64,000 nucleotides of DNA, from the NCBI RefSeq assembly GCF_900105025.1, contig NZ_LT629759.1, forward strand, positions 434,001 to 498,000, read 5' to 3'. Positions 11,998 to 31,579 of the stretch are shown in pieces (the stretch's first letter is position 1; the number at the start of each line of letters is the position of its first letter). The stretch is from Parafannyhessea umbonata. GTDB taxonomy: Bacteria > Actinomycetota > Coriobacteriia > Coriobacteriales > Atopobiaceae. The notes under the pieces are model-generated. The model was not told where the DNA came from. It was given only the letters and a program-made list of their open reading frames with translations, and did not search any database. A program made the translations under genes and the position numbers.

Positions 11998-11999
11998 CC

Positions 12000-13049: not shown

Positions 13050-13087
13050 ACGGAGCATATCAGATTCGATATTTGCGGAGGCAGTAC

Positions 13088-13990: not shown

Positions 13991-14008
13991 TAGGAGACTG
14001 TGAGGCAT

Positions 14009-15484
14009 ATGGAATTCGAGAAGAACCTATCCGTTATCGAGACCGGCATTGCTGGGCTCAAGGTCGTCGAGCTTGCGGTGCACGGTGACAACCGCGGCTG
14101 GTTTAAGGAGAACTTCCAACGTGCGAAGATGTGCGCGTTGGGTATTCCTGACATCCGTTACGTCCAGAACAACGTGAGCTTCAACGCGAAGCGCGGCGTC
14201 ACGCGCGGCATCCACGCAGAGCCCTGGGACAAGTTCATCTCCGTTGCTACCGGCTCCGTATTTGGGGCATGGGTCGACCTTCGCGAGGGGAGCGAGACCT
14301 TCGGCCAGGTGTTTACGACCACGCTCGACCCATCCCGCGCGATTTTCGTACCCCGTGGAGTCGGCAATTCCTTCCAAGCCCTAGAGGATGGCACGGCATA
14401 CACGTATCTCGTCAACAGGCACTGGTCTGCAGAACTCAAGAAGACATATACCTTCGTAAACCTTGCCGATCCTACGCTCAACATAAAATGGCCGATTCCC
14501 CTTGCGGAGGCAGAGCTCTCGGAGGCGGATAAGAACCACCCCATGCTCGAAGACGTCGTTCCCATGAAGGCTCCGCGCGCGCTGGTCACCGGCTGCAACG
14601 GTCAGCTCGGCCGGGCCGTGCGGGCCCTCGCGGAGGAGACGGGCGTCATAGACACGTTCGACTTCTGCGACATCGATACCTTTGACCTCTCAAGGGCAGA
14701 GGACTACTCAAAGTACGACTGGGACCTCTACGGAACGGTCATCAATTGTGGTGCGTATACGGCAGTGGACAAGGCCGAGACCCCCGAGGGCAGGAAGGTC
14801 TGCTGGGCCGCAAACGCCACTGGTCCCGCACTCATGGCGCGGACCTGTGCCGAGCATGGCATTACCATGGTTCACGTGAGCTCCGACTACGTGTTCGACG
14901 GCACGCGGGAGGTACATGACGAGGACGAGGGCCTCGCGCCGCTCTCGGTGTACGGTCAGTCCAAGGCGGCCGGGGATCTTGCCGTCGAAGCGTGCCCTCG
15001 GCACTACATCGTTCGCTCCTCCTGGGTCATTGGAGACGGTCGCAACTTCGTGAAGACGATGGCCGCGCTCTCCGATCGCGTTGCGGACCCATCTGACTCG
15101 CTTGATGCCATCACTGTCGTGGATGACCAGTCTGGAAGGCTCACGTTCACGGACCAGATGGCCAAGGGCATCTTCCACCTCCTCGGCTACCGCGACGGAT
15201 TGGCGCCCGTCGACCCCGCCCCGTATGGCACGTACGACCTCACCGGTTCAGGAGCCACAAAGAGCTGGTGCCAGATTGCTTCAAAGGTGTTCGAGCTCAG
15301 GAATGGGAACGACGATGCGGTGCGACCCGTTTCCACGGAGAAGTACTACGCCAGCGCCGCCGGCCCCATCGCACCACGTCCCCGCTACTCGACCCTGGCG
15401 CTCGACAAGCTCTCCGCGACAGGCTTCACCCCCAGGGACTGGGAGCATCAGCTTGCGGAGTACGTTGCGACTCTGACCAGGTAG
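14009..15484 (+). CDS. Fused RmlC-RmlD: dTDP-4-dehydrorhamnose 3,5-epimerase / reductase
   Basis: One 491-residue chain carries two pathway steps. Residues about 10-185 are an RmlC-type cupin (HGDNRGWFKENFQR, NNVSFNAKRGVTRGIH), which epimerises dTDP-4-dehydro-6-deoxyglucose at C3 and C5. From about residue 190 an RmlD short-chain reductase follows, with the NAD(P)H motif VTGCNGQLGRAV, VSSDYVFDGT and the catalytic YGQSK, reducing the product to dTDP-L-rhamnose. Such fusions are known in coriobacteria and some other Gram-positives. The ATG at 14009 is favoured; a GTG at 14000 is also in frame. It lies 18 bases after rmlA. Confidence 0.92.
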   Translation: MEFEKNLSVIETGIAGLKVVELAVHGDNRGWFKENFQRAKMCALGIPDIRYVQNNVSFNAKRGVTRGIHAEPWDKFISVATGSVFGAWVDLREGSETFGQVFTTTLDPSRAIFVPRGVGNSFQALEDGTAYTYLVNRHWSAELKKTYTFVNLADPTLNIKWPIPLAEAELSEADKNHPMLEDVVPMKAPRALVTGCNGQLGRAVRALAEETGVIDTFDFCDIDTFDLSRAEDYSKYDWDLYGTVINCGAYTAVDKAETPEGRKVCWAANATGPALMARTCAEHGITMVHVSSDYVFDGTREVHDEDEGLAPLSVYGQSKAAGDLAVEACPRHYIVRSSWVIGDGRNFVKTMAALSDRVADPSDSLDAITVVDDQSGRLTFTDQMAKGIFHLLGYRDGLAPVDPAPYGTYDLTGSGATKSWCQIASKVFELRNGNDDAVRPVSTEKYYASAAGPIAPRPRYSTLALDKLSATGFTPRDWEHQLAEYVATLTR

Positions 15485-15512
15485 GAACAAGACAACTGAC
15501 AAGGAGCCCTAG

Positions 15513-16535
<1,023 letters not shown>

Positions 16536-16649: not shown

Positions 16650-18989
16650 TTAGGCAAGCCGCTTATCTCCGAGCCAACCCCACCTTGGCGTGACCGTCAC
16701 TCCGTAGTACGCTAACCAATCCTTTACGGCAATCTGACGGACGTAGCCGTAGACACTGTCCCTTATGAACCCGTCTCCGATGTAGATGCCGACGTGTCCG
16801 TAGACGGAACCAGCTCGCGTATGCGGGTGGGAGCTGACGGCAATGATCATTCCGATTTTGAGCTGTTTCGGGTCGGATGAATGACAATACCTGCGATAGA
16901 GGTCACACGCGTCGCCAGAATAGTATCCGTAACCGGCGTTCGCGACGACGTTTGAGACCCAGAGTGCGCAATAGCCACCAGGAGTTGCGGGCGTGCTGAA
17001 GGCAGAGTTGCGAACGCAGGCCTGAGCGCTGTTCATTGTGGCCGTGATCTGACCGTAATAGCTACTCTCGTCCACAAATGCGAAGGCGGTGCTGCCGGGT
17101 GCGTTGTTACCCTTGGGTACGAGTGTAATCTCGAACGCCTCTGCGGAAAGGTCGAGTCCCGAAGTGCCTGCGGAAGCGCCGTCCAATGCCCAGTCAAGCC
17201 AACCGATGTTGTGTGTGTGGACTCGATAGTACACGTCGAAGAAGCGGGCAAGCGTGCCGCCTAGGGAGATTCGTATCCCCTGGATGCTGTTTGCAACGGA
17301 CGAGTTCCCTGCGTCGGACCCATCTGATTGGGCGCCAACCCAACCAACATTGGCTAGATGGACCTGGTATGAGATATCTCCCGAGAATGAGTTGGTGCCT
17401 GCGTCCAGAGAGGCTCTCATCGCGATTATCGGCATGCTCTTGCCCGTTGAACCAGCGACGCCACCGTTAGACGCGTTTGACCACTCGCCGCTGGATTCCT
17501 GACCAGAATATGAAACTCCGGCAGCAGATACGTAACCGATGCCGGTACTCGGCTTGCTGGCGGCTGTCTTTCTGCACATGTACAGCTGAATTGCCTCAAT
17601 TCGCTTGGAAAGGTCGGTCGTGCCAGAAATGGAGTTTCGTTCTACACCACCAAGTACCCAGTCGAGCCAACCGTAGTTTGCGACATGTACGCGGTAGTAA
17701 AGGTCGTACTGCTTTGCAATATCTCCTTGTAGGCAGAACTGGACCGCTTCAACGCGCAAACCTCTGCCCGTGGTTCCCGAAACAGCCCCGTTTGCGACCC
17801 AGTTGCCCCAGCCGCTATTCTGGAGATAGGTGCGGTACTGTATCCCGCCATCGATGTCGTAGCCACTTCCAATGGTCGCAGAGATTGCCTCGATACGCTT
17901 CCCAACGCCCGTGGTCCCCGACGTTTGTCCATTGGTCGCGGTGGCGTTCTGCCAGCCGATATCCTGCACGTGGCTTGCGATGGAGATTCCGGCGTTGTCG
18001 ACAAACGAGCTGTCTCCGGTAGCGGGGGAGTCAGATGCGCCTTTCAGTTTGAGAAGGATCTGCAGGGCCTCAATCCGCTTTCCAAGGCCGACGGAGCCAG
18101 CTGCATCACCATTGCAGGTCCAGTCAAGCCATCCCCGGTCCTGGATGTGGACGCGATAGAAGATATCGTAGAACTGAGCATATTGGTCAAGAAGGCGAAT
18201 CCTAAGGGCCTCGATGGCACGTGACTTGCCCGTGGTGCCGGCGGTTTCGCCATCGCGACTCCAAGTTTTGTCCCAGCCTTGGTATGCAATGTGGGCCTTG
18301 TACTCGACCGCGTTCGAGATCTCTGCACCGTTGCTGTCGACAATCGAGATTCTGACAGCCTCGACACGCTTGCTTTCGCCTGTGGTGCCTGCCGTCGCAG
18401 GGGTAGGCTGGTTTGGGTCGGATGAGACTTCCTCCTGCCACCCCTTGTCCTGCACGTGAGCCTGGTAGCGGACGGAGGGCATCGAGTCCTTAGATTGCCC
18501 TTCTCCAATGTCCTGGCTTGTGGAATTCGAATCGGTTGTGTCGATAGGGGCGCTAGTATCGCTCAAATCTGTGCTTATGGACCCGGTCGAATTGTCTTCG
18601 GGGGATGTCCGCGTGTTGGGGATATCCTGGCTCTCGATCTTATCCGGGCTTCCGATCTGGTTGGACTGTCCCTCGGTTGTTGTGGTGCTGTTGCTGCTTT
18701 CTGCCGGCGTGGACTGTTGAGTCGCTGGGGGCTCCGTCGTCTGGAGCTGCGTCATCGGTTGCGATGTCGTTGCAGGCGCGCTGGTCTTAACTGCATCGGT
18801 TGTCGCGCTATCTGTATCCGATGCCATGGCGAGGGTTGGGGCAACCATTGTAGAGAGCGCGAAGGCTAGACCTGCGGTTACGGCGAGCGCGGAAAGCCTG
18901 GCGTTACGTCCAGAGAGCATGCCCTCTTTGGGGGAATTTGTGCAGGGTGCAAGATGCTTTGGCGAGTATTGTGACTTATACGTGACCAT
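16650..18989 (-). CDS. Secreted ChW-repeat protein with C-terminal NlpC/P60-like domain
   Basis: This 779-residue secreted protein has a long N-terminal signal peptide ending near TLAMA, a Ser/Thr/Gln-rich spacer (to about residue 165) and nine ChW repeats. These are units of about 50 residues with HVQxxGWQ, AGTTG and R(I/V)EA motifs, and they occur as three A-B-C triplets. The last 140 residues form a papain-like domain with Cys in YCALWVSN and His in YGHVGIYIG, as in NlpC/P60 or CHAP peptidoglycan hydrolases. The repeats are expected to bind the wall and position the cleaving domain. AGGAGG lies six bases before the ATG, fixing the start. The seventh repeat is degenerate. The gene is divergent from the other three ChW genes. 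The exact peptide bond cut is unknown. Confidence 0.85.
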   Translation of the reverse strand: MVTYKSQYSPKHLAPCTNSPKEGMLSGRNARLSALAVTAGLAFALSTMVAPTLAMASDTDSATTDAVKTSAPATTSQPMTQLQTTEPPATQQSTPAESSNSTTTTEGQSNQIGSPDKIESQDIPNTRTSPEDNSTGSISTDLSDTSAPIDTTDSNSTSQDIGEGQSKDSMPSVRYQAHVQDKGWQEEVSSDPNQPTPATAGTTGESKRVEAVRISIVDSNGAEISNAVEYKAHIAYQGWDKTWSRDGETAGTTGKSRAIEALRIRLLDQYAQFYDIFYRVHIQDRGWLDWTCNGDAAGSVGLGKRIEALQILLKLKGASDSPATGDSSFVDNAGISIASHVQDIGWQNATATNGQTSGTTGVGKRIEAISATIGSGYDIDGGIQYRTYLQNSGWGNWVANGAVSGTTGRGLRVEAVQFCLQGDIAKQYDLYYRVHVANYGWLDWVLGGVERNSISGTTDLSKRIEAIQLYMCRKTAASKPSTGIGYVSAAGVSYSGQESSGEWSNASNGGVAGSTGKSMPIIAMRASLDAGTNSFSGDISYQVHLANVGWVGAQSDGSDAGNSSVANSIQGIRISLGGTLARFFDVYYRVHTHNIGWLDWALDGASAGTSGLDLSAEAFEITLVPKGNNAPGSTAFAFVDESSYYGQITATMNSAQACVRNSAFSTPATPGGYCALWVSNVVANAGYGYYSGDACDLYRRYCHSSDPKQLKIGMIIAVSSHPHTRAGSVYGHVGIYIGDGFIRDSVYGYVRQIAVKDWLAYYGVTVTPRWGWLGDKRLA

Positions 18990-19412
18990 AGTTGCCTCCT
19001 ATCCTCTTGATCGCCTTCAGGCGACATTTGTCCTGCATTGCGGTCAACCGAATATCGGACATTGTTTCCGATGGTGGGGAACCATGTGATGCTTGCGCCT
19101 AGGGAACTCGACCTCATGCCGGAAAACAACGTTCCGTATCCGGTTATCAAGGTGCGGGAAAAATCGAAGTCGACCCGACTAACCCGTTGGAAAGTCCATA
19201 GCTGGCTCCAGCGAGAAATGCCTCGTCGTCAATGGGAACCTCAACTGTTTGAGAGGTGCCTTGCATGTCACGACACGGTAAAACGTGCGGACAACATACG
19301 ACTTGTTGCGAAAGAAACTAGCGAGCATCGGGTCCAATCTTAGCATTTAAGGTAAGATTGTGAATCTAGATGGAGACTTGAATTCTTTCTCAATGTCCGT
19401 TTGGAGGTACAG
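18990..19412. promoter_or_regulatory. Divergent intergenic region between two ChW-protein genes
   Basis: This 423-base stretch has no convincing gene. It must hold the promoters of both flanking wall-protein genes. Visible elements are a small hairpin just before the minus-strand ribosome binding site (TCGCCT/AGGCGA) and, near the plus-strand gene, a perfect inverted repeat CAATCTTA (19335-19342) and TAAGATTG (19353-19360), which could be an operator. No clear -35/-10 pair could be assigned with confidence. Confidence 0.5.
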
Positions 19413-21635
19413 ATGCGTACTCGATTTCAGGGCATGCTTGCGACGATCACATCTTTTGCTATGTGCATGGCCCTCGTTCCAACGCCCGCCCTTGCCGAAG
19501 CGTTGAACAGCTCTTCAGGAGACGGTGCGGCGCCATCGGAGCGGGAATTCGCTTCGTCTAGCATAAATCGGGATAGCACTGGGAGGAATGGTGAAGATTC
19601 GTCAAGTAACCAGGACTTGACAGGACAGGACGCTTCTGCTTCCAGAACAGACGTAAGCGCTTCTATCCAGGATGATGCCAGCGCGTCTTCTGAGCAGACA
19701 TCTACGCTGACGAACCAGGAGGACTCGTCGTCCTCAACCCCGACTGAATCCGATTCCCAGAGCGCCGCCAATGCAGACGAGCAGAAGCAAGAGCCCGATC
19801 TAACTTATGCGGCCCACGTCCAAAACATCGGCTGGCAGGCAAACGCGTCTGACGGCGAGGTTGTCGGTACGACGGGCAAAGGTCTGCGTATGGAAGCGCT
19901 GCGCCTCTCGCTTGGCAACATGACCGATGGTTCTTCCATCAGCGTAAGCGCACACGTCCAGAACATCGGATGGCAGGACTGGAAGAGCAGCGCCGACAGC
20001 GAGGACGGCTATGCGATCGCGGGTACAACTGGTAAAGGTTTGCGCGTTGAGGCAGTCAAGATCAAACTCGATGGCCCTGTCGCTTCCCGCTACGATGTCT
20101 GGTATCGCGTCCACGTTCAGGACAAGGGCTGGATGGGTTGGACCAATGATGGTTTGATGGCTGGCACCACGGGCTTGGGCAAGCGTATCGAGGCGGCCCA
20201 GGTGATGCTTGTCGAAAAGGGCGCGGACGTCCCGGGTTCGACCAGTGGGTCCTCCGAGACGGGCACAGAACAGCAGCCATCCGTTTCGTATCGCACGCAC
20301 GTGCAGAATATGGGATGGCAGGGCTGGTTCAGCGACGGCAAGACTGCCGGCACGACCGGTATGGGTCTTGCCGTGGAGGCGCTCGATGCGCGCCTTTTCG
20401 GCCTCAATGGCGCTGTGCAGGTTGATTCTCACGTGCAGGACCTTGGCTGGCAGGGCTACAGGCAGACTTCCGACAGCATCGTGTCTGGTACTACTGGCCA
20501 GTCCAAGAGGGTCGAGGCAATCAGGGCCAGGCTTACTGGCGAGGCCGCTCAAAAGCATGACCTATGGTATCGTGTGCACGTTAAGAACCTCGGCTGGCTT
20601 GGCTGGGCAAAGGCGGGGAGCGATTCCTCCGACGGAGCCATTGCCGGCACGACCGGTCTTGCCCTTCGCGTGGAGGCGGTGCAGTTCAAACTGACTGACA
20701 AGGGTGCCGCTGCACCTGGCGACACGAGCCGTCCGTACGTTGCGGCTCCGACCCTCACGTATCAGGCTCACGTGCAGAACATCGGCTGGCAGGGTTGGGT
20801 CGGTTCCGGTGCTGTCGCTGGTACCACGGGCAGGGGGCTCCGTGCTGAGGCTCTGTGTGCCAAAGTGTCTGGTGTGGGTCAGACGGGCGAGGTACAGATT
20901 AGCGCACACGTTCAGGACATCGGCTGGCAGAACTGGAAGTCCCAGGGGGATGTTGCCGGCACCATTGGCCAGGGTAGGCGTGTAGAGGCCATTCGCATTC
21001 AACTGACAGGTAGCATGGCCCAGACATGTGACGTGTGGTATCGAGTGCATATCGAGAGGCTCGGCTGGATGGGCTGGACCAGGAATGGCGGCTATGCCGG
21101 GTCCACTGGGTGCTCCGCTCGCATTGAGGCCGTCCAGATCATGGTGACACCGAAGGACTCCGTTGCGCCGGGGTCTACCTGGCTCTCGTACACCACGGAT
21201 CGAGGGCTCTTTATGGAAGACGCCGACATGTACTACCGTGCCCAGAATTATGGCAGCAGGACCAATTGGCTTCTCATGGTGAACTATGGCGCATGTAGGG
21301 TCGGCATTTTCATGCGCTCGGGTAGTGGCTGGAGCCTGTACGACTACATCATGTGCTCTGACGGCCAGTACAGCACGCCTACCGTCCATGGCGTCTTTAC
21401 CGTTGGCGCCAAAGGCTATTCGTTCAGCGGCGGCGACCATACGTGTTACTACTACACGCAGTTCTATGGCGACTACCTGTTCCACTCCGTTCTGTACCAT
21501 CGTGGAACTTATGGTGTCCTCGACGGCAGGCTTGGTATGCACATCTCGCAGGGTTGTGTGCGTCTTGACATCAACAAGGCGAAGTGGATTCACGACAACA
21601 TTCCGACAGGTACCACGGTGGTCGTCTACAACTAG
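19413..21635 (+). CDS. Secreted ChW-repeat protein with C-terminal L,D-transpeptidase (YkuD) domain
   Basis: This 740-residue protein starts with a signal peptide ending near PALAEA, then a Ser/Thr/Asp/Glu-rich spacer to about residue 125, then nine ChW repeats in three A-B-C triplets (about 130-590). The C-terminal 145 residues are a YkuD fold with the catalytic stretch GMHISQGCVRLD, where Cys is the nucleophile and the upstream His part of the active site. Such enzymes make 3-3 peptidoglycan cross-links or attach proteins to the wall. The ATG is chosen over the TTG at 19401 because GGAGG lies five bases before it. It is the first of three co-oriented ChW genes, and a long hairpin separates it from the next. 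Confidence 0.88.
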   Translation: MRTRFQGMLATITSFAMCMALVPTPALAEALNSSSGDGAAPSEREFASSSINRDSTGRNGEDSSSNQDLTGQDASASRTDVSASIQDDASASSEQTSTLTNQEDSSSSTPTESDSQSAANADEQKQEPDLTYAAHVQNIGWQANASDGEVVGTTGKGLRMEALRLSLGNMTDGSSISVSAHVQNIGWQDWKSSADSEDGYAIAGTTGKGLRVEAVKIKLDGPVASRYDVWYRVHVQDKGWMGWTNDGLMAGTTGLGKRIEAAQVMLVEKGADVPGSTSGSSETGTEQQPSVSYRTHVQNMGWQGWFSDGKTAGTTGMGLAVEALDARLFGLNGAVQVDSHVQDLGWQGYRQTSDSIVSGTTGQSKRVEAIRARLTGEAAQKHDLWYRVHVKNLGWLGWAKAGSDSSDGAIAGTTGLALRVEAVQFKLTDKGAAAPGDTSRPYVAAPTLTYQAHVQNIGWQGWVGSGAVAGTTGRGLRAEALCAKVSGVGQTGEVQISAHVQDIGWQNWKSQGDVAGTIGQGRRVEAIRIQLTGSMAQTCDVWYRVHIERLGWMGWTRNGGYAGSTGCSARIEAVQIMVTPKDSVAPGSTWLSYTTDRGLFMEDADMYYRAQNYGSRTNWLLMVNYGACRVGIFMRSGSGWSLYDYIMCSDGQYSTPTVHGVFTVGAKGYSFSGGDHTCYYYTQFYGDYLFHSVLYHRGTYGVLDGRLGMHISQGCVRLDINKAKWIHDNIPTGTTVVVYN

Positions 21636-21639
21636 CATT

Positions 21640-21674
21640 CGAGCGAGGGTGCAATAAACGTGCGCCCTCGCTCG
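21640..21674 (+). terminator. Intergenic hairpin between ChW genes (terminator or attenuator)
   Basis: CGAGCGAGGGTGCA (21640-21653) pairs with 21661-21674 over 14 positions with one G-T pair and a 7-base loop. No T-run follows, so it may be an mRNA-stabilising or partial-termination hairpin rather than a full terminator. Confidence 0.55.
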
Positions 21675-21708
21675 TAGCCTTTACCAGCATGGATATGAGG
21701 AGCACCAC

Positions 21709-23949
21709 ATGAAAAGGCACTTGGCAATCGTTGCCTGCGGAGCACTTCTGGTGCTCAGCTTGGGCCAGATCTCGGCATTCGCGGCGGATTCTACCACGAC
21801 GCAAGGTACTGCAGACTCAAGTTCGATGACAAACGGCCCTTCCGATGACGATAGCCCTAGCTCTGCGACATCTCCTGTAAGTACGAGCGAGAAGGGTGTG
21901 GCCTCCCCTGCAGAGGACATGGTTGCCGAGGGCATAGACGAGTCACGGTCTACGAGTTCTGGCGAGTCCATCTCCACAGGCGAGTCAGCGTCAGAGTCTG
22001 GCCAGCCCAGTTCCTCAGGCGATATCCAGAACGAGGGGCTTGTAAACTACAGGGCCCATGTCCAGAGCATCGGCTGGCAAGACTGGACCAGGGACGGGGG
22101 CCTAGCTGGTACGACGGGCAAGTCTCTACGCGTCGAGGCGTTCCAGCTCCGGCTGAAGAGTGCCTTATCGGGCTCCATCGAGTATTGCGCCCACGTCCAA
22201 AACGTTGGCTGGCAAAAGTGGTTCAAGGACGGAGAGATTGCGGGCACCTCTGGCGAAAGCCTACGTATCGAGGCGCTGTGCATCCGACTTACGGGTGACG
22301 CTGCCAAGGAGTATGACGTTCGTTATAAGGTTCATGTGCAGAACGAGGGTTGGACCGATTGGGTTTATGACGGCGATGTTGCTGGTACGGAGGGCAAGTC
22401 GCTTCGGATTGAGGCCGTCGAGGTTGAGCTGGTTAAGAAGCCTGAGGCTTCTGTCTCGGGCGCCGCGCACGTTCAGGACTACGGATGGATGCGAGCCGTC
22501 AGGGATGGCGCACAGATGGGTGTTGTGGGTCAGCAGAAAAGGCTAGAGGCTTTCAACCTCGAACTTTGCGGGACCATGTGCCCTGATGCCGGTGACAGTC
22601 ATATCGAGTATGCGGCGCATGTGCAGAATGTTGGTTGGCAACCGTATGTTTCGGACGGCGCAAATGCGGGTACCACGGGCGAGGGCCTTCGCGTTGAGGC
22701 AATCAAGATTCGGCTATCTGGCTCCATTTCGGAGAAGTACGACGTCTGGTATCGTGTCCACATTAAGGACTACGGCTGGCTCGCGTGGACCAAGGACGAT
22801 GGGGCTGCAGGTACGACTGGACTTTCAAAGCGCGTTGAGGCTATACAGGTGGAGCTTCGCGCGAAGAATGCTGATGCACCCAAGAACGATGGCCAATGGC
22901 CATTGGCCACGTTTGGCGCCGCTGACGTCAGCTACCGCACTCACGTCCAGAACATCGGCTGGCAGGATTGGCAGTCTAACGGAAGTCTGAGCGGAACAAC
23001 GGGTAGGAGCCTCCGCGTCGAGGCGTTCGAGGCAAACGTGAAGGCCGAAGGAATCACGGGCGGCATTAGCTATTGCACACACGTTCAGGACAAGGGCTGG
23101 ACGGATTCCGTATCGGATGGTGTGGTTTCTGGTACTGTTGGCTCTTCCAAGCGCGTCGAGGCTCTCAAGGTCTGGCTGACGGGCGACATGGCCAAATACT
23201 ATGACGTCTGGTACCGCGCCTATGTGCAAGAGTACGGATGGCTTGGCTGGACATGCGACGGCGCAATCGCTGGCTCCACGGGCATTGAATACAGGGTCGA
23301 GGCGATAGAGGTGCAGGTGCTCGCCAAGGGTTCCGATGCGCCTGGGTCGACGTCGAGCCCGTATGTGACGCAGCCTGTGAGGCGAGTGTACTTCCACAAC
23401 ATCAATGCCGTGGGCCAACCAAACGGCTTCTTCTGCGGCCCGACGTCCGGCTACATGGTCCTCAGCAACGTTGGCGCATGGCGTTCAAATTCTGGGACGC
23501 CGCTATCTATAGAGAACGTTGCCTCGTACATGCGCACGAGGTCGTACGGCTACACGAGCTTTGCCGACCGCATGTTCGAGAAGGGAATGAATGACTGGCT
23601 TGGAAGGAATGTGTACACCACATATCACACGCCAAGCTATGCCACGGTGAGGTCCTCGGTCTTGAAGTCGTATTCGACGGGATATGCGACGTGCGTGGAC
23701 GAGCAGGAGCGTAGGGGCGGCCCTCACTTCAACGGGCACGGAAACACGACCTTCTCGCACATCATGGTGGTCGACGGATACAACGAGGCAACGGATCAGG
23801 TCTACTTCGCAGACCCGGCTTGCTCGCTCTACGCAGGCGCGTCACCTCATTTCTGGTATCCCAGCCTGCGTACGTTCACGAACACCTACCTGGCACAGGA
23901 GTACATCCGCGACGGCAGGCAGCACATCGGCATCTACACCTCGAGGTAA
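21709..23949 (+). CDS. Secreted ChW-repeat protein with C-terminal C39-like cysteine peptidase domain
   Basis: This 746-residue protein has a signal peptide (cleavage near SAFAA), an acidic Ser/Thr-rich spacer and nine ChW repeats in three triplets; the fourth repeat is shortened. The last 190 residues look like a peptidase_C39_2 domain, with the Cys in NGFFCGPTSGY and the His in FSHIMVVDGYN followed by VYFADPA. In this family the papain-like fold can cleave peptides or act on wall or pilus proteins; the target here is unknown. AGGAG lies eight bases before the ATG. It follows the L,D-transpeptidase gene and precedes a membrane-anchored protein by 11 bases, so these are probably one transcript. 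Confidence 0.83.
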   Translation: MKRHLAIVACGALLVLSLGQISAFAADSTTTQGTADSSSMTNGPSDDDSPSSATSPVSTSEKGVASPAEDMVAEGIDESRSTSSGESISTGESASESGQPSSSGDIQNEGLVNYRAHVQSIGWQDWTRDGGLAGTTGKSLRVEAFQLRLKSALSGSIEYCAHVQNVGWQKWFKDGEIAGTSGESLRIEALCIRLTGDAAKEYDVRYKVHVQNEGWTDWVYDGDVAGTEGKSLRIEAVEVELVKKPEASVSGAAHVQDYGWMRAVRDGAQMGVVGQQKRLEAFNLELCGTMCPDAGDSHIEYAAHVQNVGWQPYVSDGANAGTTGEGLRVEAIKIRLSGSISEKYDVWYRVHIKDYGWLAWTKDDGAAGTTGLSKRVEAIQVELRAKNADAPKNDGQWPLATFGAADVSYRTHVQNIGWQDWQSNGSLSGTTGRSLRVEAFEANVKAEGITGGISYCTHVQDKGWTDSVSDGVVSGTVGSSKRVEALKVWLTGDMAKYYDVWYRAYVQEYGWLGWTCDGAIAGSTGIEYRVEAIEVQVLAKGSDAPGSTSSPYVTQPVRRVYFHNINAVGQPNGFFCGPTSGYMVLSNVGAWRSNSGTPLSIENVASYMRTRSYGYTSFADRMFEKGMNDWLGRNVYTTYHTPSYATVRSSVLKSYSTGYATCVDEQERRGGPHFNGHGNTTFSHIMVVDGYNEATDQVYFADPACSLYAGASPHFWYPSLRTFTNTYLAQEYIRDGRQHIGIYTSR

Positions 23950-23960
23950 GGCGATAGAAC

Positions 23961-25319
23961 ATGGCGAATCACTTCAGGCGAGAGACTGGGGCAGAAGGCG
24001 TTGCGAACGGTTCCTCGTCTGCAGGGAAGCTTGGCGCGAGAAAAGCAGCCATCGTAATCGGGCTATCCCTGTTGGTTCTGGCGCTGCTGGGCATCGTGCT
24101 ATTCGTGCTTTGGACAAGGACAAATGGGGAGCCGAAGGAATCGGGTTCCAAGGGTGAGGCCGAGGTCGAGACGGTAAGTCCCAAAACCGATGATGGCAAC
24201 TCGTCGGGAGGGCCTGCGGGGAACGGGCTCCCGTTCAGCCTGACGGGGGTGAGTTCGAACGCGCCAATCGTGAAGGTGAAGGAGGGTGAGGCAAAGGCAT
24301 CGCTTGCCGACGAATGGACGTTCGGTGGCGACTACCGCGAGATTGGGTCGTTCCCGATAGATGGCTCCACCGTGTTTGGCTCGTTTACGGACGACCCAGA
24401 CAACCTCCTTTCCTACACGCCTGCGCTGATTGGCACTTCTGGTACCAAGAGACTGGGTAGTGCCTCCGCTGTCTCTGGAGACGGATACTTTGAGCCCCAG
24501 GACGGTACGGGCAATTCCAAGCAGGTCGTCTGGCGTTCTGCGCGCGTGAACGACTCGAACGCGTTTGGGGTGGATGACTGGCAGATCAGTCGCTGGAGCG
24601 CGAAGGACAACGAGGTGCGCGTACTTGCGAGTGCGGAGGGCATCAACGGCCGCAAGGATACGCCAGGCATCGTTGGCGAGGTTGTCCCTACGGCAAACGA
24701 CGACTACGCGTTCTTCGCGTCCAACGTGCTGTCTGGCGACTCCTCGTGGGAGTGTGACGTTATTGCGATGCCCGTGAACGGTGGAGAGGTGCAGGGACTG
24801 GGAGAGGGGAGCTTTCCTGCCGCGGTCTCTGGCGGTGTCTTGTTCGCGACGTCTAGGGTGTCTGACGGCCACTATGCGAAGGTGCGCAGTGCGAGAAACG
24901 GCTCACTGACCGCCGCGAAGACGAGGTTTACTGTAAAGAGCGGCTCTGATCAGTGGGGCGTGACGGGTGTGTGGGCGTCCGGCAACTACAGGGCCGTGTC
25001 CTTCTCACCCGCGAGCGCGTCTAGCCAGACGTATGTGGGGCTCTGGTCCGGTGACTTCGATAAGCCAGTCGTCTGGCTTGCGATACCCTCGGGAAGTGTA
25101 GTCGCCTCGATGAACGACAGATGGTTCGTGTGGGGGAGCGGATCCCAGGGCGAAAATGCCGGGATGTACGCGTATCGCTGGTCGGACGGGAAGACGTTGT
25201 ACCTAGGAACTGCGAAGGGCTATTCGAGGCCGTCGATTTCGCAGGACGGTGATGTTGTCATGGTGCCGGAGACCGACGGAAACAAAGCAGCACGGTATCA
25301 TGTGGGAAAACTCGACTGA
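23961..25319 (+). CDS. Single-pass membrane protein with large extracellular domain, unknown function
   Basis: This 452-residue protein is not recognised. It has a basic cytoplasmic tail, one membrane segment at about residues 30-52 (IVIGLSLLVLALLGIVLFVL), an Asp/Glu/Ser-rich linker and a 370-residue extracellular part rich in beta-type strands. Loosely periodic Trp/Gly/Asp patterns (VVWRSARVND, ISRWSAKDNEV, VVWLAIPSGS) suggest a beta-propeller, which is inference only. No catalytic motif was found. It sits 11 bases after the C39-like ChW gene and 61 bases before the GH25 ChW gene, so it may act with them, for example as a sensor or assembly factor at the wall. Confidence 0.6.
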   Translation: MANHFRRETGAEGVANGSSSAGKLGARKAAIVIGLSLLVLALLGIVLFVLWTRTNGEPKESGSKGEAEVETVSPKTDDGNSSGGPAGNGLPFSLTGVSSNAPIVKVKEGEAKASLADEWTFGGDYREIGSFPIDGSTVFGSFTDDPDNLLSYTPALIGTSGTKRLGSASAVSGDGYFEPQDGTGNSKQVVWRSARVNDSNAFGVDDWQISRWSAKDNEVRVLASAEGINGRKDTPGIVGEVVPTANDDYAFFASNVLSGDSSWECDVIAMPVNGGEVQGLGEGSFPAAVSGGVLFATSRVSDGHYAKVRSARNGSLTAAKTRFTVKSGSDQWGVTGVWASGNYRAVSFSPASASSQTYVGLWSGDFDKPVVWLAIPSGSVVASMNDRWFVWGSGSQGENAGMYAYRWSDGKTLYLGTAKGYSRPSISQDGDVVMVPETDGNKAARYHVGKLD

Positions 25320-25380
25320 CGTCCGCAACGGCCCGAGCGTGTGGCCGCATTGACGTCTTGGACGCGAAGGGGGACGCTTC

Positions 25381-28167
25381 ATGCGGGGCATGGCAAGAGG
25401 ACGTTTAGAATCGCTTTCGATTGCGACGTTGGTATCTACTTTGTTGGCGATGGCATGCGTTTTGTGCGCCGTTAGCGCCTACGGCGAGGAGACGCCTTCT
25501 GCTTCCGCGCACGACGCTGCGGACATCACCTTCAAGTTGGGGAAGGGCGTGCCGGCTACCGATGCGGCGAACGAAGAGCTGGGGTGGCGGAAGGTTGCAA
25601 CCGTAGCGAGCGCTTCGGAATTGGCTGCGGTTGGAGACGATGCTGCCGAGCCGGACGGTACATCCTTCTCGTACGTTGAGCTTGGCGGGGAAGATCGCGA
25701 CAAGATAGAGGTAAGCGTCAAGGCTGGAGACTCGAACTGGTCCGACTGGACGAAGGGCGACTCCGAGCAGGAGCAGGTGTCTGACGGAAAAGTGCCGATG
25801 CAGTGCGTGCGCCTGAGGCTTGCCTCGGATGACGTGAGTGAGTATGCGATTGCCTATAGGGTGCACGTCGCAGGCAGCGGATGGCTTGGGTGGTGCGCGG
25901 ACGGGGAGGTCGCCGGGTGCGAGACGGACGGTACGGTGGTAGACGACCTCGAGGTTGTCTTCGTGAAGAGGGGCGAGGGGAACGAGCTTGCCATGTTCCT
26001 CTCTGGGCAGGACAAGGCGGCCTACGTTGGTTCCGATAACGCTGGAGGCGCTACGGAGGCCAATCGGGAGAACGCGGCGGATTCCGAAGATTCTTCGACG
26101 AGCGCGGGACTGCCCGCTGCTAGGCCGTCTGCGTCGAGTGCTGTGACGGCGTCGGTTAGCTATCGTGCGCATGTACAGAATATAGGTTGGCAGTCGTACG
26201 TCTCGGACGGAGAGACCGCAGGTACCACCAGCCGTGGGTTGAGGGTCGAGGCGCTCTCGCTTGGGGTGGCAGGTGTGAGTGGCGGCATACGATACCGTGC
26301 TCACGTCCAGAACATAGGCTGGCAGGGCTGGCATGCGGACGGCGAAGATTGCGGCACGACGGGCAGGGGGCTTCGCGTAGAGGCGTTGCAGATCGAGCTG
26401 ACGGGTGCCGCGTCAGCCAACTACGACGTCTACTATCGCACCCACGTGCAGAACGTCGGCTGGACCTCCTGGTCGAAGAATGGCGCGACGTCGGGAACGA
26501 CCGGCATGGGTCTTCGCGTCGAGGCGGTTCAGGTTCTCCTGGTTAAGCACGGGCAGGCGATTCCCACGGGGGATGGCGCTGCATATTCGAAGTTCGCCAA
26601 TAGAACGTATTCGAGCCCGACCATTCGGTACCAAACTCATGTCCAAAGCGTTGGTTGGCAGGCGGAGACCAATGACGGAAACATGGCCGGGACTCAAGGA
26701 CGGTCCCTGAGGCTCGAGGCGCTGAGGGTGAGTGTCGCGGGCGTCAGTGGGGGAATTCAATACAGGGCGCATGTCCAGAACATAGGATGGCAGAGCTGGG
26801 AGAACGACGGTTCCATTGCTGGTACCGAAGGCCAAGGCCTGAGGATGGAGGCGCTGGAAGTCCAGCTTACCGGAGATGTCGCTTCGAGCTATGACGTGTA
26901 CTACAGGGTGCATGTTTCGGACATTGGCTGGATGGCTTGGGCGAAAAATGGTGAGACAGCTGGTACCGTAGGGCTCGGAAGGCGCGTCGAGGCGGTCCAG
27001 ATGAAGCTTGTGAAGAAGGGCTCGCCTGCACCGTCTGGCGAAGACGAGAAGGCTTCCTACCCATCCATCTACGCACCGGAAATTACCTATGCGACGAGCT
27101 CTGTCGGGGGTGACTGGCAGGCTACGGTCAAGGACGCTGAAGTCTCTGGCACAACGGGAAAGTCGCTCTCTATCGGTCGACTCCGTGCACAGCTCTCCTC
27201 TCCCTCTTCCTATGGCGGCATCAATTACCAGGTATCGACGGATGGCACAGACTGGTCCGATGTCGTATCGGATGGAGTCGATGCCGGCGTGTCGGGCTCT
27301 GCGCTAAAGGCTGTTCGCCTCTCGCTGACAGGTGCTGCAGCAAAGTATTGCGATGTGTGGTACTGCGTACACGTCTCTAACATCGGATGGCTTGGCTGGA
27401 CGAGAAATGGTTGTGATGCCGGTACGGAAATCAGCTCGGATTCCATAGAGGCGATTCAGGTCGTCGTCAAGCTGAAGAGCTCATCAGCACCGGGCTCTAC
27501 GGTCAAGCCCTTTGCCTACCAGGATCTTTTGAACGGAATCGACATCGCTTCTCACCAAGCCGGAATCGATGTAGCTGGCGTGTCGGCGGACTTCGTATTC
27601 GTCAAGGCGACGCAGGGCACCTGGTACAAGAATCAGCTTCCCTCAAAGGGATACGATTACGCCGCCTGGGCAGACAAGATACTTGCAAGTGGGAAGCTCC
27701 TCGGCTTCTATCACTACGCCGAGGGTGGGGATCCAGTGAAGGAGGCCGAGTACTTCTACGATGCCATCAAAGCCTACAAGGGAAGAGCCGTGGTGGCTCT
27801 CGATTGGGAGGAGCAGGAGAACAAACTCTTTGGCACCGGCTTTGACGTGCAGTGGTGCAAGAGGTTCCTGGATAGGATTGCAGAGCTTATGGAAGCGAAG
27901 CCCCTCATATACATGAGCAAGAGCACCACAAGAATGTACGACTGGGGCTCTGTTGCCACTAGCTATCCATTATGGGTTGCCCAGTATGCAAGCAACAACA
28001 CTACGGGATATCAATCGAACCCGTGGACAGATAGCTATTCATTTGGCGCTTGGGCAAAGCCCCTCGTCTTCCAGTATTCCGCCACCGGAAGGGTCAGCGG
28101 ATACGAGGGAGACCTCGACTTAGACCTTTTCTACGGCTCTCGGAACTCTTGGGTTGCGCTTCAGTAG
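25381..28167 (+). CDS. Secreted ChW-repeat protein with C-terminal GH25 lysozyme domain
   Basis: This 928-residue protein has a signal peptide ending near SAYGEE, then about 680 residues of ChW repeats in four triplets. The first and last triplets are degenerate, with several lost HVQ and GTTG motifs. The final 210 residues are a glycoside hydrolase family 25 muramidase: it begins GIDIASHQ, carries the catalytic Asp/Glu in VVALDWEE and ends with YEGDLDLDLFYG. It should cut the MurNAc-GlcNAc glycan backbone. GGGGGA precedes the ATG. It closes the wall-protein cluster and, with the NlpC-like, L,D-transpeptidase and C39-like proteins, gives four catalytic ends on one wall-binding scaffold. Confidence 0.9.
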   Translation: MRGMARGRLESLSIATLVSTLLAMACVLCAVSAYGEETPSASAHDAADITFKLGKGVPATDAANEELGWRKVATVASASELAAVGDDAAEPDGTSFSYVELGGEDRDKIEVSVKAGDSNWSDWTKGDSEQEQVSDGKVPMQCVRLRLASDDVSEYAIAYRVHVAGSGWLGWCADGEVAGCETDGTVVDDLEVVFVKRGEGNELAMFLSGQDKAAYVGSDNAGGATEANRENAADSEDSSTSAGLPAARPSASSAVTASVSYRAHVQNIGWQSYVSDGETAGTTSRGLRVEALSLGVAGVSGGIRYRAHVQNIGWQGWHADGEDCGTTGRGLRVEALQIELTGAASANYDVYYRTHVQNVGWTSWSKNGATSGTTGMGLRVEAVQVLLVKHGQAIPTGDGAAYSKFANRTYSSPTIRYQTHVQSVGWQAETNDGNMAGTQGRSLRLEALRVSVAGVSGGIQYRAHVQNIGWQSWENDGSIAGTEGQGLRMEALEVQLTGDVASSYDVYYRVHVSDIGWMAWAKNGETAGTVGLGRRVEAVQMKLVKKGSPAPSGEDEKASYPSIYAPEITYATSSVGGDWQATVKDAEVSGTTGKSLSIGRLRAQLSSPSSYGGINYQVSTDGTDWSDVVSDGVDAGVSGSALKAVRLSLTGAAAKYCDVWYCVHVSNIGWLGWTRNGCDAGTEISSDSIEAIQVVVKLKSSSAPGSTVKPFAYQDLLNGIDIASHQAGIDVAGVSADFVFVKATQGTWYKNQLPSKGYDYAAWADKILASGKLLGFYHYAEGGDPVKEAEYFYDAIKAYKGRAVVALDWEEQENKLFGTGFDVQWCKRFLDRIAELMEAKPLIYMSKSTTRMYDWGSVATSYPLWVAQYASNNTTGYQSNPWTDSYSFGAWAKPLVFQYSATGRVSGYEGDLDLDLFYGSRNSWVALQ

Positions 28168-28297: not shown

Positions 28298-29317
28298 ATG
28301 GGAAGGCGTCATATATATGCCTATGATTTTATTAGAGCCATCGCGATTATCATGGTCGTCGCGGTTCATTGTATTCCGGGCAGGGCGGAAACATCAGCTG
28401 CTCATTTTTACAACACTCTGTTTCAAGCAGCATTATTCCCTTGCAATGTCCTGTTCTTTATCCTGAGTGGACTTTTGAATATTCATGCAGACTACGAGTC
28501 ACGCTACTTGGACTACGCTTTACGAAAGCTTCGCTCAATCCTCCTGCCCACACTTGTATTCATGTTTATTAATACCGTTGTCGATATGGTGGGGCTGCCA
28601 GGCGCCGACTTTGTAACAATTGCAAAGCAGTTCTTGACCAACTCTTTTTCCAGTTACTCAGACAGTATTTTTTGGTTCGTCATGGCAATCTTTGCCATGA
28701 TTCTTGTAGCGCCTTTCTTTGCAAATTCGTTTGAACGGATGAAACGGGATGCTTGTCGCTTCTTTTCCGCACTATTCTTGGTTTTTTCTGCGCTCAATCT
28801 AGTTGGCTTCTATCTTGGTATAGGTTTCGGTTGGTCGTGGCCAACGAGCATGTTCTTCGTCGTTTTCCTTCTCGGTCCTTCTATTGGACATATAAAGATA
28901 AAACACCCTGCTGTTCCGTGGGCTATTTTTTGCGCCTGCGTCGCAGTGTCAACTCTGCTTATTATGGGTGGATTGCCTCATCATCCCGCGGATGATAATA
29001 CACCTTTCTATTTTCTTGCTGGAGGAGCTCTGTTTCTTTGTCTTCGCCAGATGGGGGAAAGGCTTAAGCCAAATCGCTTTATATCGGTCATTTCCAAGTA
29101 CTCCTTTGATATCTATATGTGTCACATAATGCTGCTTCCTCACATGCCTGATTTTTTACTGATGACAACCAGGCCTCTCGCTCACATAGCGCTTACCGCT
29201 TCGGTTTTAGTGGCGTCGCTTATCGTTTCGATAGTTGCAGAATATCTGGTGATTAAACCTTTGCAGAATCTGGTTAGTCACATCCAAAATGGTCTGAGCT
29301 CATCCGCTGAGAGCTAA
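28298..29317 (+). CDS. Acyltransferase 3 family membrane protein
   Basis: This 339-residue protein with about ten membrane segments starts YAYDFIRAIAIIMVVAVHC, the usual first helix of acyltransferase-3 enzymes with the conserved Arg and His. Family members O-acetylate or otherwise acylate peptidoglycan, polysaccharides or lipids. No SGNH partner domain is attached. AAAAGGAG precedes the ATG. Its base composition is the most A/T-rich in the window, unlike the flanking genes, which suggests acquisition from another genome. The substrate is unknown. Confidence 0.82.
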   Translation: MGRRHIYAYDFIRAIAIIMVVAVHCIPGRAETSAAHFYNTLFQAALFPCNVLFFILSGLLNIHADYESRYLDYALRKLRSILLPTLVFMFINTVVDMVGLPGADFVTIAKQFLTNSFSSYSDSIFWFVMAIFAMILVAPFFANSFERMKRDACRFFSALFLVFSALNLVGFYLGIGFGWSWPTSMFFVVFLLGPSIGHIKIKHPAVPWAIFCACVAVSTLLIMGGLPHHPADDNTPFYFLAGGALFLCLRQMGERLKPNRFISVISKYSFDIYMCHIMLLPHMPDFLLMTTRPLAHIALTASVLVASLIVSIVAEYLVIKPLQNLVSHIQNGLSSSAES

Positions 29318-29590
29318 TCAGTCCAGCACTTTGTCGTAATCAAAAACTAAACCAGCAGAGGACCGACAACTTTCGAATGTGACTGACGATTTACAAAAGG
29401 ATTGTATGTAAGTTTATACAAAGTGGTTTGCTGCAGGACATGCAGGGTGGCATTAGGAATTCTGAGTGTACGAGGACGAGACTTCGATAGCCGTCGCGCC
29501 ACAACGGGGTTGGCTTGCGCGCGTCGCATTGGGGTATCCTACTAGGAAGCGACTCGATTGGCCGGGTGGCGTACGTGCGGAAGGTGTCTT
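29318..29590 (+). promoter_or_regulatory. Leader region before the amaP operon
   Basis: No gene is evident. A perfect inverted repeat TTGTAT (29402-29407) and ATACAA (29416-29421) is visible. A possible -10 TATCCT at 29535-29540 lies before amaP, but the best -35 (TTGGCT) is 19 bases away, so the promoter is uncertain. Confidence 0.35.
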
Positions 29591-30466
29591 ATGGGATTCT
29601 TCAAGCGGCTCTGCCTGTTTGTGTTTGGCCTGGCCGGACTTCTGGCCCTTGCGGCTCTGGTCCTGCCATGGTTTGGCCCGTGGACCAGCGAGGCCACGGC
29701 GCTTTTGGGGGTTGACGAGTACTACATCGCCGTGGAGGCGCTGGTGCTGGTGACGGCCCTGGGCTGTCTGATCTGCCTGCTGAGGTCCATCTTCAAGCGC
29801 AACCGCAAGACCATCATCGTGGCGAAGGAGGGCGGCGACCAGATCACCGTGACGCGCGACGCCATTGCGTCGCAGGCGACGCACGTTATCGAGGAAGACG
29901 GAACCTACACCGCAAAGCGCGTGAGCGTCTGGGCCAAGAAGCGCGGGCACGTCCGCGTGGCCGCCCGCGTCCAGCCGCAGATGACGGTGGACACCGTGGC
30001 GGCGGGCAGGGACCTGCACGACCGTCTGGTCGCGGGGCTCACGACCGTGTGCGGCGACAACGTGGACAGCGTTGACCTAGAGTTCCTTAACGCCGCGGAG
30101 TACGCGCCGACCTCGGCTCATGCCGGTGACTACGCGTTCTCTGCGAGCGACCTTGCTGCCGGCCCCTCGAGCATCGTGGACCGCCCGGTCGTGACCGCGG
30201 CGGCCGATTCGAGCGATGACGACTCTGCCGAGGTCGCGACGGCCGCGGCGGATGTGCCGGCGGAAGACGCGAAAGCCAAGGATCCGACGGCCGAGGGCGA
30301 TGACGTGGATACGGCGTCCGACGAGGCACCGACGGCATCGGCATCGGCCTCCGTCGCGGATGATGCGAAACCAAACGACGACGCGCCAGAAGTCGAGGGA
30401 TCCGAGATAACGGTTCCCATGGCCCGCTATGCCGGCAAGGACAGCGAGACCACGGGGGAGGAGTAG
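29591..30466 (+). CDS. amaP: Alkaline shock response membrane anchor protein AmaP
   Basis: This 291-residue protein has two N-terminal membrane segments (about residues 8-28 and 46-65), a basic loop and then a domain resembling Asp23 (ITVTRDAIASQATHVIEEDG...VAARVQPQMTVD). In Staphylococcus AmaP tethers Asp23 to the membrane. The last 90 residues are a low-complexity Ala/Asp/Glu tail. The ATG at 29591 has GGAAGGTG five bases upstream and is preferred to longer versions. It is followed within 3 bases by a DUF2273 gene and then by an Asp23 gene, the classical amaP-DUF2273-asp23 arrangement. Confidence 0.85.
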   Translation: MGFFKRLCLFVFGLAGLLALAALVLPWFGPWTSEATALLGVDEYYIAVEALVLVTALGCLICLLRSIFKRNRKTIIVAKEGGDQITVTRDAIASQATHVIEEDGTYTAKRVSVWAKKRGHVRVAARVQPQMTVDTVAAGRDLHDRLVAGLTTVCGDNVDSVDLEFLNAAEYAPTSAHAGDYAFSASDLAAGPSSIVDRPVVTAAADSSDDDSAEVATAAADVPAEDAKAKDPTAEGDDVDTASDEAPTASASASVADDAKPNDDAPEVEGSEITVPMARYAGKDSETTGEE

Positions 30467-30469
30467 GGC

Positions 30470-30829: not shown

Positions 30830-30893
30830 CGAAGACCATGGCCGGCGCGCGCCGGCGACCGATACGGAACGACCCGTCCAAGAGGAGAGGGCA

Positions 30894-31577: not shown

Positions 31578-31579
31578 CC

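What the first reader, a model, noticed from the sequence alone, without database searches (positions are those of the whole stretch)
16650..28167. Four ChW wall proteins sharing a three-repeat super-unit but carrying four different catalytic ends
The NlpC/P60-like, L,D-transpeptidase, C39-like and GH25 proteins all have a signal peptide, a Ser/Thr/Asp-rich spacer and ChW repeats. The repeats are not independent. They run in A-B-C triplets, where B is linked to C by a segment like A..YDVWYRVH and C ends with a KG..(A)PGS linker. Three triplets are present in three of the proteins and four, partly degenerate, in the GH25 protein. This suggests modular exchange of catalytic domains on one wall-binding scaffold, giving a toolkit that cuts glycan, cuts peptide, cross-links and processes protein.
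Basis: partly seen in the sequence, partly recalled or inferred. Interest (0 to 1): 0.8.

Follow-up and report, generated by a model that had tools for sequence, protein, structure and literature searches.

The report
Wall enzymes sharing one house anchor
Four secreted bacterial enzymes share a wall-binding anchor whose repeats come in threes and are predicted to fold as one unit; related bacteria carry relatives of these enzymes on other anchors, but most genomes examined keep to one main anchor type.

Summary
Four secreted proteins (window 16650-28167) carry 9-11 ChW repeats in A-B-C triplets plus NlpC/P60-fold, L,D-transpeptidase (LDT), C39-like and GH25 ends, and hold all ChW hits of the genome. 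The triplet is general: 99 of 106 complete ChW frames elsewhere have a repeat number divisible by three. It was already suggested by Sullivan 2007 (read second-hand). One triplet models as a single all-beta domain (pLDDT 96, pTM 0.89) with no convincing solved match; phage lysin models carry it. A/B/C typing is partly confirmed: C is distinct, A and B weakly so. No recent shuffling: 12 of 12 triplets best match their orthologous place in a sister species. Over longer times anchors are exchanged: relatives of the C39 domain sit on ChW, ricin-B, DUF5648 or choline-type anchors, with a membrane-anchored partner gene beside them in 6 of 8 genomes. Across the family, LDT and NlpC proteins share anchor type in 33 of 33 genomes where both carry one of four anchors, and the LDT anchor is the genome's most numerous in 28 of 28. 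Best reading: one house anchor per lineage, switched as a set. Binding and ligand are untested.

The parts
16650..18989 (-). ChW protein 1 (P0001): signal peptide (by eye), Ser/Thr/Asp-rich spacer, 9 ChW repeats, NlpC/P60-fold domain (about residues 645-779)
18051..18473 (-). P0001 triplet 1
17589..17987 (-). P0001 triplet 2
17121..17516 (-). P0001 triplet 3 (A degenerate)
19401..21635 (+). ChW protein 2 (P0002): signal peptide (by eye), spacer, 9 ChW repeats, YkuD L,D-transpeptidase domain with HISQGCVR motif (its name as a catalytic motif is recalled)
19800..20210 (+). P0002 triplet 1
20283..20675 (+). P0002 triplet 2
20748..21188 (+). P0002 triplet 3 as modelled (core 20754-21146): one all-beta domain, pLDDT 96.2, pTM 0.89
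21709..23949 (+). ChW protein 3 (P0003): signal peptide (by eye), spacer, 9 ChW repeats, C39-like domain with conserved C, H, D
22042..22431 (+). P0003 triplet 1
22453..22857 (+). P0003 triplet 2
22927..23319 (+). P0003 triplet 3
23961..25319 (+). P0005: membrane-anchored protein (membrane stretch by eye) of unknown fold; partner gene of the C39 domain, directly downstream of it in 6 of 6 genomes found to have it, on ChW and other anchors
25381..28167 (+). ChW protein 4 (P0004): signal peptide (by eye), 11 recognisable ChW repeats (B0-C0 plus three triplets), GH25 domain
25705..25962 (+). P0004 degenerate N-terminal B0-C0
26155..26541 (+). P0004 triplet 1
26623..27009 (+). P0004 triplet 2
27082..27468 (+). 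P0004 triplet 3 (A and B degenerate)

Best explanation
These are four secreted wall-remodelling enzymes held at the cell wall by ChW triplet domains. Three repeats (A, B, C) fold together into one compact all-beta domain, and each protein carries three or more such domains as beads before its catalytic end (repeat order and spacing shown; fold predicted). The catalytic ends act on nearby wall material: muramidase (GH25), DL-endopeptidase (NlpC/P60), L,D-transpeptidase, and a C39-like cysteine protease (inferred from family and motifs). The protease works with a membrane-anchored partner, P0005 (linkage shown, function inferred). In this bacterial family a genome has one main anchor type (ChW, ricin-B beta-trefoil, choline-binding type or DUF5648) used on several enzymes alike, and lineages have switched the anchor under the set (matching shown for LDT and NlpC, and for C39 with LDT in 4 genomes). 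The likely reason is that the anchor must fit the wall polymer or cross-bridge of that lineage (inferred). The ligand of ChW here is unknown.
For: Repeat number divisible by three in 99 of 106 complete frames, with median gaps A-B 46, B-C 47, C-A 59. Triplet model pLDDT 96.2, pTM 0.89, five models at 95.2-96.2. Five viral protein models match over the whole triplet (TM by query 0.72-0.78, E 5e-12 to 5e-6), three of them named lysin, endolysin or lysozyme. Sister species G002 has the same genes in the same order. C39 and P0005 co-occur: P0005 in 6 (E up to 1e-10) and C39 in 8 (E up to 1e-20) of 347 genomes, all 6 adjacent (Fisher p 1e-11, which is generous because five of the six genomes supplied the query profiles). 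C39 on four anchors. LDT/NlpC anchor match: 19 of 19 classified neighbour pairs (0 of 100,000 shuffles) and 14 of 14 classified pairs not found together; collapsed to 13 genus-anchor combinations, p 1.4e-6. C39 and LDT share the anchor in 4 of 4 genomes with both classified (G000, G002, G049, G091). LDT anchor is the most numerous of four anchor families in 28 of 28 genomes. Surface binding by ChW-type lysin parts: passages in PMC6700490 and PMC10610939.
Against: No binding or activity was tested, and the ligand is unknown. PMC6700490 found its ChW anchor (annotated by manual alignment, no Pfam hit) absent from the wall fraction released by lysozyme/mutanolysin, so the target may not be peptidoglycan. 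LicD, a choline-transfer family (recalled), does not follow the choline-type anchor (6 of 9 choline genomes against 6 of 8 ChW genomes). The house-anchor rule is not absolute: 12 of 28 genomes hold a minor second family, and G001, of the window's genus, has both ricin-B and ChW. 28 of 50 NlpC frames looked at carry none of the four anchors, so the match speaks only of those that do. Of the 14 pairs not found together, 12 lie on different contigs, where the true distance is unknown. The LDT hits of G001, G049 and G057 are weak (35-39% identity) and may be paralogues. Anchor counts use different repeat units.
Confidence: 0.7

Rival explanations
1. Matched anchors are a by-product of local events (tandem duplication, gene conversion between neighbours, or transfer of the gene pair as one block), with no selection for a shared ligand.
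For: Many LDT and NlpC genes are neighbours (20 regions). LDT domains do not follow genus strictly (25 changes for 22 genera), so whole genes move. 12 of the 14 pairs not found together are on separate contigs of unknown distance, some at contig ends.
Against: 14 of 14 classified pairs not found together match too, one about 1 Mb and one 55 kb apart on one contig (G065, G068). The rule covers dozens of anchor domains in most of the genomes. No sign of gene conversion in the window: 0 of 36 repeats is closer to a paralogue than to its orthologue.
Confidence: 0.2
2. ChW triplets here are mainly spacers or stalks that place the enzyme, and wall binding is done otherwise.
For: Some repeats have lost the H..GW signature (P0001 A3, P0004 A3 and B3). 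The ligand is given as not known in a 2018 review.
Against: ChW-type parts of phage lysins bind bacterial surfaces. Key aromatic and glycine positions are 90% or more conserved across 137 triplets. The anchors found in its place in other genomes are mostly lectin or wall-binding types.
Confidence: 0.12
3. Each repeat binds on its own, and threes are an accident of duplication history.
For: A and B are hardly distinguishable in the core, and a tree of single repeats is unresolved.
Against: 99 of 106 frames have multiples of three; the triplet models as one domain; phage lysin models match over the whole triplet.
Confidence: 0.05

Closest known systems
ChW proteins of Clostridium acetobutylicum (PF07538; Nolling 2001, Sullivan 2007, as cited in PMC5817068, passages read)
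   Same: Same repeat family; triplet association and surface role already suggested; multi-repeat surface proteins
   Different: Other class of bacteria; here the triplet spacing is measured across many loci, the triplet is modelled as one domain, and the anchor is matched between enzymes of a genome
ChW-type binding domains of lactococcal and lactobacillus phage endolysins (AM12, CL1) and the Lc-Lys domain for amidated D-Asp cross-bridges (PMC6700490, PMC10610939, PMC4033162, passages read)
   Same: Wall-binding part of a peptidoglycan hydrolase. PMC10610939 labels the CL1 domain ChW, and says that an L. casei prophage lysin domain with ChW binds peptidoglycan
   Different: Phage lysins with short binding parts; whether the window's triplets bind such a cross-bridge is untested, and no sequence of these lysins was compared here
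NlpC/P60 (C40) peptidases, YkuD L,D-transpeptidases, GH25 muramidases, Peptidase_C39_2
   Same: Catalytic ends of the four proteins. A 2019 review lists ChW with GH25, NlpC/P60 and the YkuD transpeptidase family (PMC6403190, passages)
   Different: The NlpC/P60-fold end scores no NLPC_P60 Pfam hit; the C39-like end travels with P0005, a partner with no Pfam family
Species-wide wall anchors such as choline-binding proteins of pneumococcus, CWB2 proteins of Clostridioides and SLH proteins of Bacillus (recalled, no call)
   Same: One anchor type used by many surface proteins of one species
   Different: Here relatives of the same enzymes are seen on four anchor types inside one family, matched within each genome

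Membership tests
ChW repeat proteins (PF07538) | ChW repeats above the Pfam cut-off | tested here: met
   300-462 bits against a cut-off of 22 in all four
ChW repeat proteins (PF07538) | Repeats in arrays (triplets) | tested here: met
   arrays of 9-11 repeats in triplets
ChW repeat proteins (PF07538) | Secreted | tested here: inconclusive
   signal-like N-terminal stretches read by eye; no predictor was run
ChW repeat proteins (PF07538) | Binds the cell wall | not testable with these tools
   no binding assay
NlpC/P60 peptidase (P0001 end) | Pfam NLPC_P60 match | tested here: inconclusive
   no NLPC_P60 hit; sub-threshold CHAP hit, E 0.0025, 18.7 of 26 bits
NlpC/P60 peptidase (P0001 end) | Papain-like NlpC/P60 fold | tested here: met
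   model pLDDT 68, pTM 0.74; VIA Z 12.6 to 6bim (rmsd 3.0, 116 aligned); the 50 rows shown are mostly NlpC/P60, with some endolysins and Tse1 amidases; Foldseek prob 1.0 but E 2.5e-3 at best
NlpC/P60 peptidase (P0001 end) | Conserved Cys and His | tested here: met
   C51 and H109 of the domain invariant in 4 of 4 rows
YkuD L,D-transpeptidase (P0002 end) | Pfam YkuD and the Cys motif | tested here: met
   38.8 bits, cut-off 23.4; HISQGCVR present
GH25 (P0004 end) | Pfam GH25 and an acidic DxE motif | tested here: met
   92 bits, cut-off 27; DWE at residue 808
Peptidase_C39_2 (P0003 end) | Pfam match and C, H, D residues | tested here: met
   32 bits, cut-off 24; C18, H126, D144 of the domain invariant in 4 of 4
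Known lectin folds (beta-trefoil, beta-prism) for the triplet | Structural match to a solved example | tested here: inconclusive
   best Foldseek E 0.27, best VIA Z 3.4; weak or missing matches do not exclude a fold

The most novel reading that the evidence does not exclude
Each lineage of this family has one house wall anchor, and its wall enzymes switch anchor together when the wall ligand changes. The ChW triplet is one of several interchangeable anchors and has a pseudo-threefold beta fold not yet seen in any solved structure. The enzymes keep their catalytic ends and their partners (C39 with P0005) while the anchor beneath them is replaced.
Probability: 0.5. Interest if true: 0.8.

Novelty: new variant of a known kind. 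Interest (0 to 1): 0.6.

Why it matters
ChW was described in 2001 and a 2018 review still lists its ligand as not known; later work on phage lysins points to peptidoglycan, but the matter is open. Treating the triplet as the binding domain gives the right construct for binding and structural work. The matched-anchor pattern offers natural experiments: sister species with related enzymes on different anchors can be compared for wall chemistry, so the ligand of each anchor becomes a testable question. It also bears on the choice of binding parts for species-targeted lysins.

Tried and rejected
Tree of single repeats: 33 columns, 1 of 33 inner branches starred, no type forms a clade; C alone is clearly less scattered than shuffles (10 of 500 as low), all types together in 12 of 200. 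Not usable as proof either way. Protein effect on repeat identity: 269, 23, 215 and 37 of 2000 shuffles as large in the four settings, so weak rather than absent. Recent shuffling or gene conversion in the window: rejected. Within-protein triplet similarity (46.6%) does not exceed between-protein (46.0%), so the triplets are old.

P0005 as a ChW-specific gene: rejected, since it occurs in genomes without ChW. P0005 has no Pfam family at E 10 in the window copy and one weak PDB hit (E 0.029). I suspect a beta-propeller from recall only. LicD as marker of the choline-type anchor: no correlation.

No solved structure found for ChW: phmmer of two whole proteins gave one chance-level hit, a profile search of the triplet alignment at E up to 10 gave none, and Foldseek and VIA on the triplet model gave nothing convincing. 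This does not show that the fold is new. Phage collections: two phage records match the triplet. One viral scan with a single triplet found none, one with P0003 found five loci, of which three hold 12 repeats, one 4 and one, cut, 3.

Not in print, as far as searched; among the rows listed (titles and abstract starts) I saw no paper on anchor matching or on a ChW structure. Only open-licence papers are held. Passages, not whole papers, were seen of PMC5817068, PMC6403190, PMC6700490, PMC8051824, PMC10610939, PMC5071367 and PMC4033162. Sullivan 2007, Nolling 2001 and Regulski 2013 were not seen.

Limits of the counts; 106 complete frames of the 123 distinct frames with two or more repeats; 17 edge frames were left out; the loci came from one scan with P0003 capped at 80; the repeat model was built from window repeats. 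A1 holds 125 of 243 locus triplets plus 12 window ones. Searches scanned 65 tails of 120 aa or more and 59 heads of 220 aa or more, out of 123 frames; 347 genomes drawn from a larger order; the two query profiles were built from genomes already known to have the pair, so only G091, G276 and G360 are independent finds (C39 in 3, P0005 in 1 of them); all 80 LDT genomes were covered, with 2-6 kb on each side where the contig allowed; of 84 LDT frames 11 had none of the four anchors, several of them cut at an edge. Of 20 regions with both genes, G061 was left out of the 19 because its NlpC frame shows no anchor: it is interrupted, and ChW frames lie directly before it; 50 NlpC frames in 49 loci; 22 carry one of the four anchors, 28 do not. 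The 19 extra loci were frames over 500 aa in LDT genomes (18), plus G140, whose LDT could not be classified; they were picked from a listing that was itself cut, so not exhaustive. Of 18 non-ChW NlpC frames scanned by Pfam 15 are CC_PcsB coiled-coil types; I set such frames aside as a separate kind of NlpC protein, but the other unanchored frames were not explained. Anchors were called with models built from single sequences (except ChW), E up to 1e-5; other anchors (CWB2, SLH) occur too, 1 each of 16. The 28 genomes were chosen by me from the 33 pair genomes plus G049, G001 and G004; eight g48 genomes were left out. In G099 and G007 the anchor counts are small (7 to 5, 9 to 2) and, as everywhere, include the LDT and NlpC proteins themselves. 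ChW counts stop at 50 scored candidates. The LDT tree is a quick one with long-branch warnings.
Full report
What is there. Four large frames between 16650 and 28167 encode proteins with a signal-like start, a Ser/Thr/Asp-rich spacer, an array of ChW repeats and a C-terminal domain. Pfam gives ChW in all four, YkuD in the second, Peptidase_C39_2 in the third and GH25 in the fourth. The first has no catalytic Pfam domain at E 0.001 and a sub-threshold CHAP hit. The genome's 35 ChW hits all lie in these four genes. A fifth gene, P0005 (23961-25319), lies between the C39 and GH25 genes; it has an N-terminal membrane stretch (by eye) and no Pfam family.

Triplets. The 38 recognisable repeats follow A-B-C order throughout, with one A missing at the start of the GH25 protein. 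The B-to-C link D[VIL]xYR is near-universal, while the APGS link marks chiefly the junction to the catalytic domain (5 of 13 C repeats, all four last ones included). Same-type repeats of different proteins are more alike than different-type ones (44.5 against 41.2% in the core, 0 of 10,000 shuffles as large), and the protein effect is weak. The effect is clearest for C; an A repeat's nearest relative in another protein is a B in 7 of 12 cases. A tree of single repeats is unresolved.

The triplet is general. In 75 loci, mostly labelled Firmicutes groups and Coriobacteriia, 99 of 106 complete frames have a multiple of three repeats, with median gaps of 46, 47 and 59. Most of the seven exceptions show a gap the size of one or two missed repeats. 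A position-specific profile trained without the window assigns 26 of 36 window repeats correctly, chance being 12. A triplet with 137 aligned sequences models as one all-beta domain at pLDDT 96.2 and pTM 0.89, with strands recurring in the three repeats. No solved structure matches convincingly by fold (best E 0.27, best Z 3.4) or by profile. Five viral protein models match over the whole triplet with TM 0.72-0.78; three are named lysin, endolysin or lysozyme. A review passage credits Sullivan 2007 with the suggestion that ChW domains associate in triplets and says the ligand is not known (PMC5817068, passage). The triplet as such is therefore not new; its one-domain reading is a prediction made here.

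History in this lineage. A sister species of the same genus (G002) has the same cluster in the same order, P0005 included, with the same flanking genes on the GH25 side; its contig ends on the other side. All 12 triplets and 35 of 36 repeats best match the orthologous place; no repeat is closer to a paralogue in its own genome. N-terminal spacers have diverged most (32-55% identity), repeats less (68-86%), catalytic domains least (81-91%). There was no recent shuffling.

Exchange over longer times. ChW arrays elsewhere carry many enzymes: among 65 tails GH25 15, YkuD 10, amidase_3 4, NlpC/P60 4, CHAP 3 and others; 59 heads include cellulase, subtilase and transglutaminase families. Conversely, P0005 occurs in genomes without any ChW hit, and there it lies directly downstream of the same C39 domain on another anchor: ricin-B repeats in G049, DUF5648 plus glucosaminidase in G112; in G013 and G360 the anchor lies beyond the stretch or contig held. 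Among 347 genomes of the order, the C39 domain is found in 8 and P0005 in 6, all 6 next to C39. Five of these six supplied the query profiles, so the Fisher value is generous. Of the two without P0005, G091 has ChW and G276 choline-binding repeats. So the enzyme and its partner look like the stable unit, and the anchor is exchanged.

House anchor. The LDT domain occurs in 80 of 140 family genomes, and an NlpC domain relative in 138 of 140. I looked at all 80 LDT loci (two loci and the window). Of 84 LDT frames, 24 are on ChW, 24 on choline-type repeats, 12 on DUF5648, 4 on DUF5648 with choline-type repeats, 9 on ricin-B, and 11 on none of these or cut. Where LDT and NlpC genes lie together (20 regions), 19 can be classified on both and 19 match: 8 ChW, 6 choline-type, 4 ricin-B, 1 DUF5648. 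Where they were not found together, 14 of 14 classifiable pairs match; one is about 1 Mb and one 55 kb apart, and 12 are on separate contigs of unknown distance. Together this is 33 of 33 genomes; collapsed to 13 genus-anchor combinations the chance is 1.4e-6. The match concerns NlpC frames that carry one of the four anchors: 28 of the 50 frames do not, many of them coiled-coil CC_PcsB types. C39 and LDT share the anchor in 4 of 4 genomes. In 28 chosen genomes the LDT anchor is always the most numerous of the four families; 16 have only that one, and the top family's share is 0.58 at the least. Different house anchors occur inside genera g1 (the window's own), g9 and g49. On a quick tree of 70 LDT domains the anchor label needs 15 changes, fewer than any of 200 shuffles (mean 38), so it is inherited but repeatedly replaced; well-supported branches force fewer changes, and some LDT hits may be paralogues.

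Mechanism. I take the triplet as the wall-binding domain and the anchor type as a fit to the lineage's wall. Shown: repeat anatomy, orthology with G002, linkage, anchor matching. Predicted: fold. Inferred: binding, ligand, enzyme activities, reason for matching. The neighbourhood contains wall and polysaccharide genes: MBOAT and an AMP-binding ligase, glycosyltransferase 2, rhamnose synthesis genes, an acyltransferase, and MurT with a glutamine amidotransferase. This fits, but does not show, a locus of wall chemistry. One attempted link, LicD with the choline-type anchor, failed. ChW-type domains of phage lysins bind bacterial surfaces (PMC6700490, PMC10610939, passages). A related L. [quoted passage not shown] relation stated in PMC10610939), but one ChW anchor was not found in the wall fraction released by lysozyme and mutanolysin, so the ligand is open.

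Verdict. The four proteins taken singly are members of a known kind. What a specialist may find surprising is the matching of anchors across enzymes within a genome and their replacement as a set; that is why I rate it a variant. The organism's name is not known to me; from the relatives found it is probably a member of the Coriobacteriia (inference).

Noticed in passing
window 23961-25319 and L103, L120, L121, L122, L135: P0005-like proteins form a family without a Pfam model that follows the C39-like domain on several anchors; the G360 copy has a lipoprotein-like start (by eye)
   Followed up: partly
genus g48 genomes G079-G094: All 16 genomes of one related genus in that search hold many ChW repeats (30 to 50 scored matches each, the cap being 50; candidates up to 277), a large expansion
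   Followed up: no
L105:8742-11336: G002 has a fifth nine-repeat ChW protein beside yebC, at the far edge of the same locus; the window's genome has none there or elsewhere; its C-terminal domain was not identified
   Followed up: partly
L072, L094: ChW proteins on contigs labelled Candidatus Saccharibacteria; binning errors not excluded
   Followed up: no
L211:13025-15376: In G061 the ChW-NlpC gene is interrupted in the assembly held (repeats and catalytic domain in separate frames)
   Followed up: no
window 3655-16535 and 28298-33668: ChW genes lie between polysaccharide, D-alanylation-like and rhamnose genes on one side and acyltransferase and MurT/amidotransferase genes on the other; G+C drops from about 65% to 50-61% between 8 and 30 kb
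   Followed up: partly
G004:C5:32009-32359, G012:C8:2983-3354, G047:C37:5204-5563 and G046:C30:3790-4134: Four NlpC-domain frames in related genomes contain one in-frame TAG
   Followed up: no
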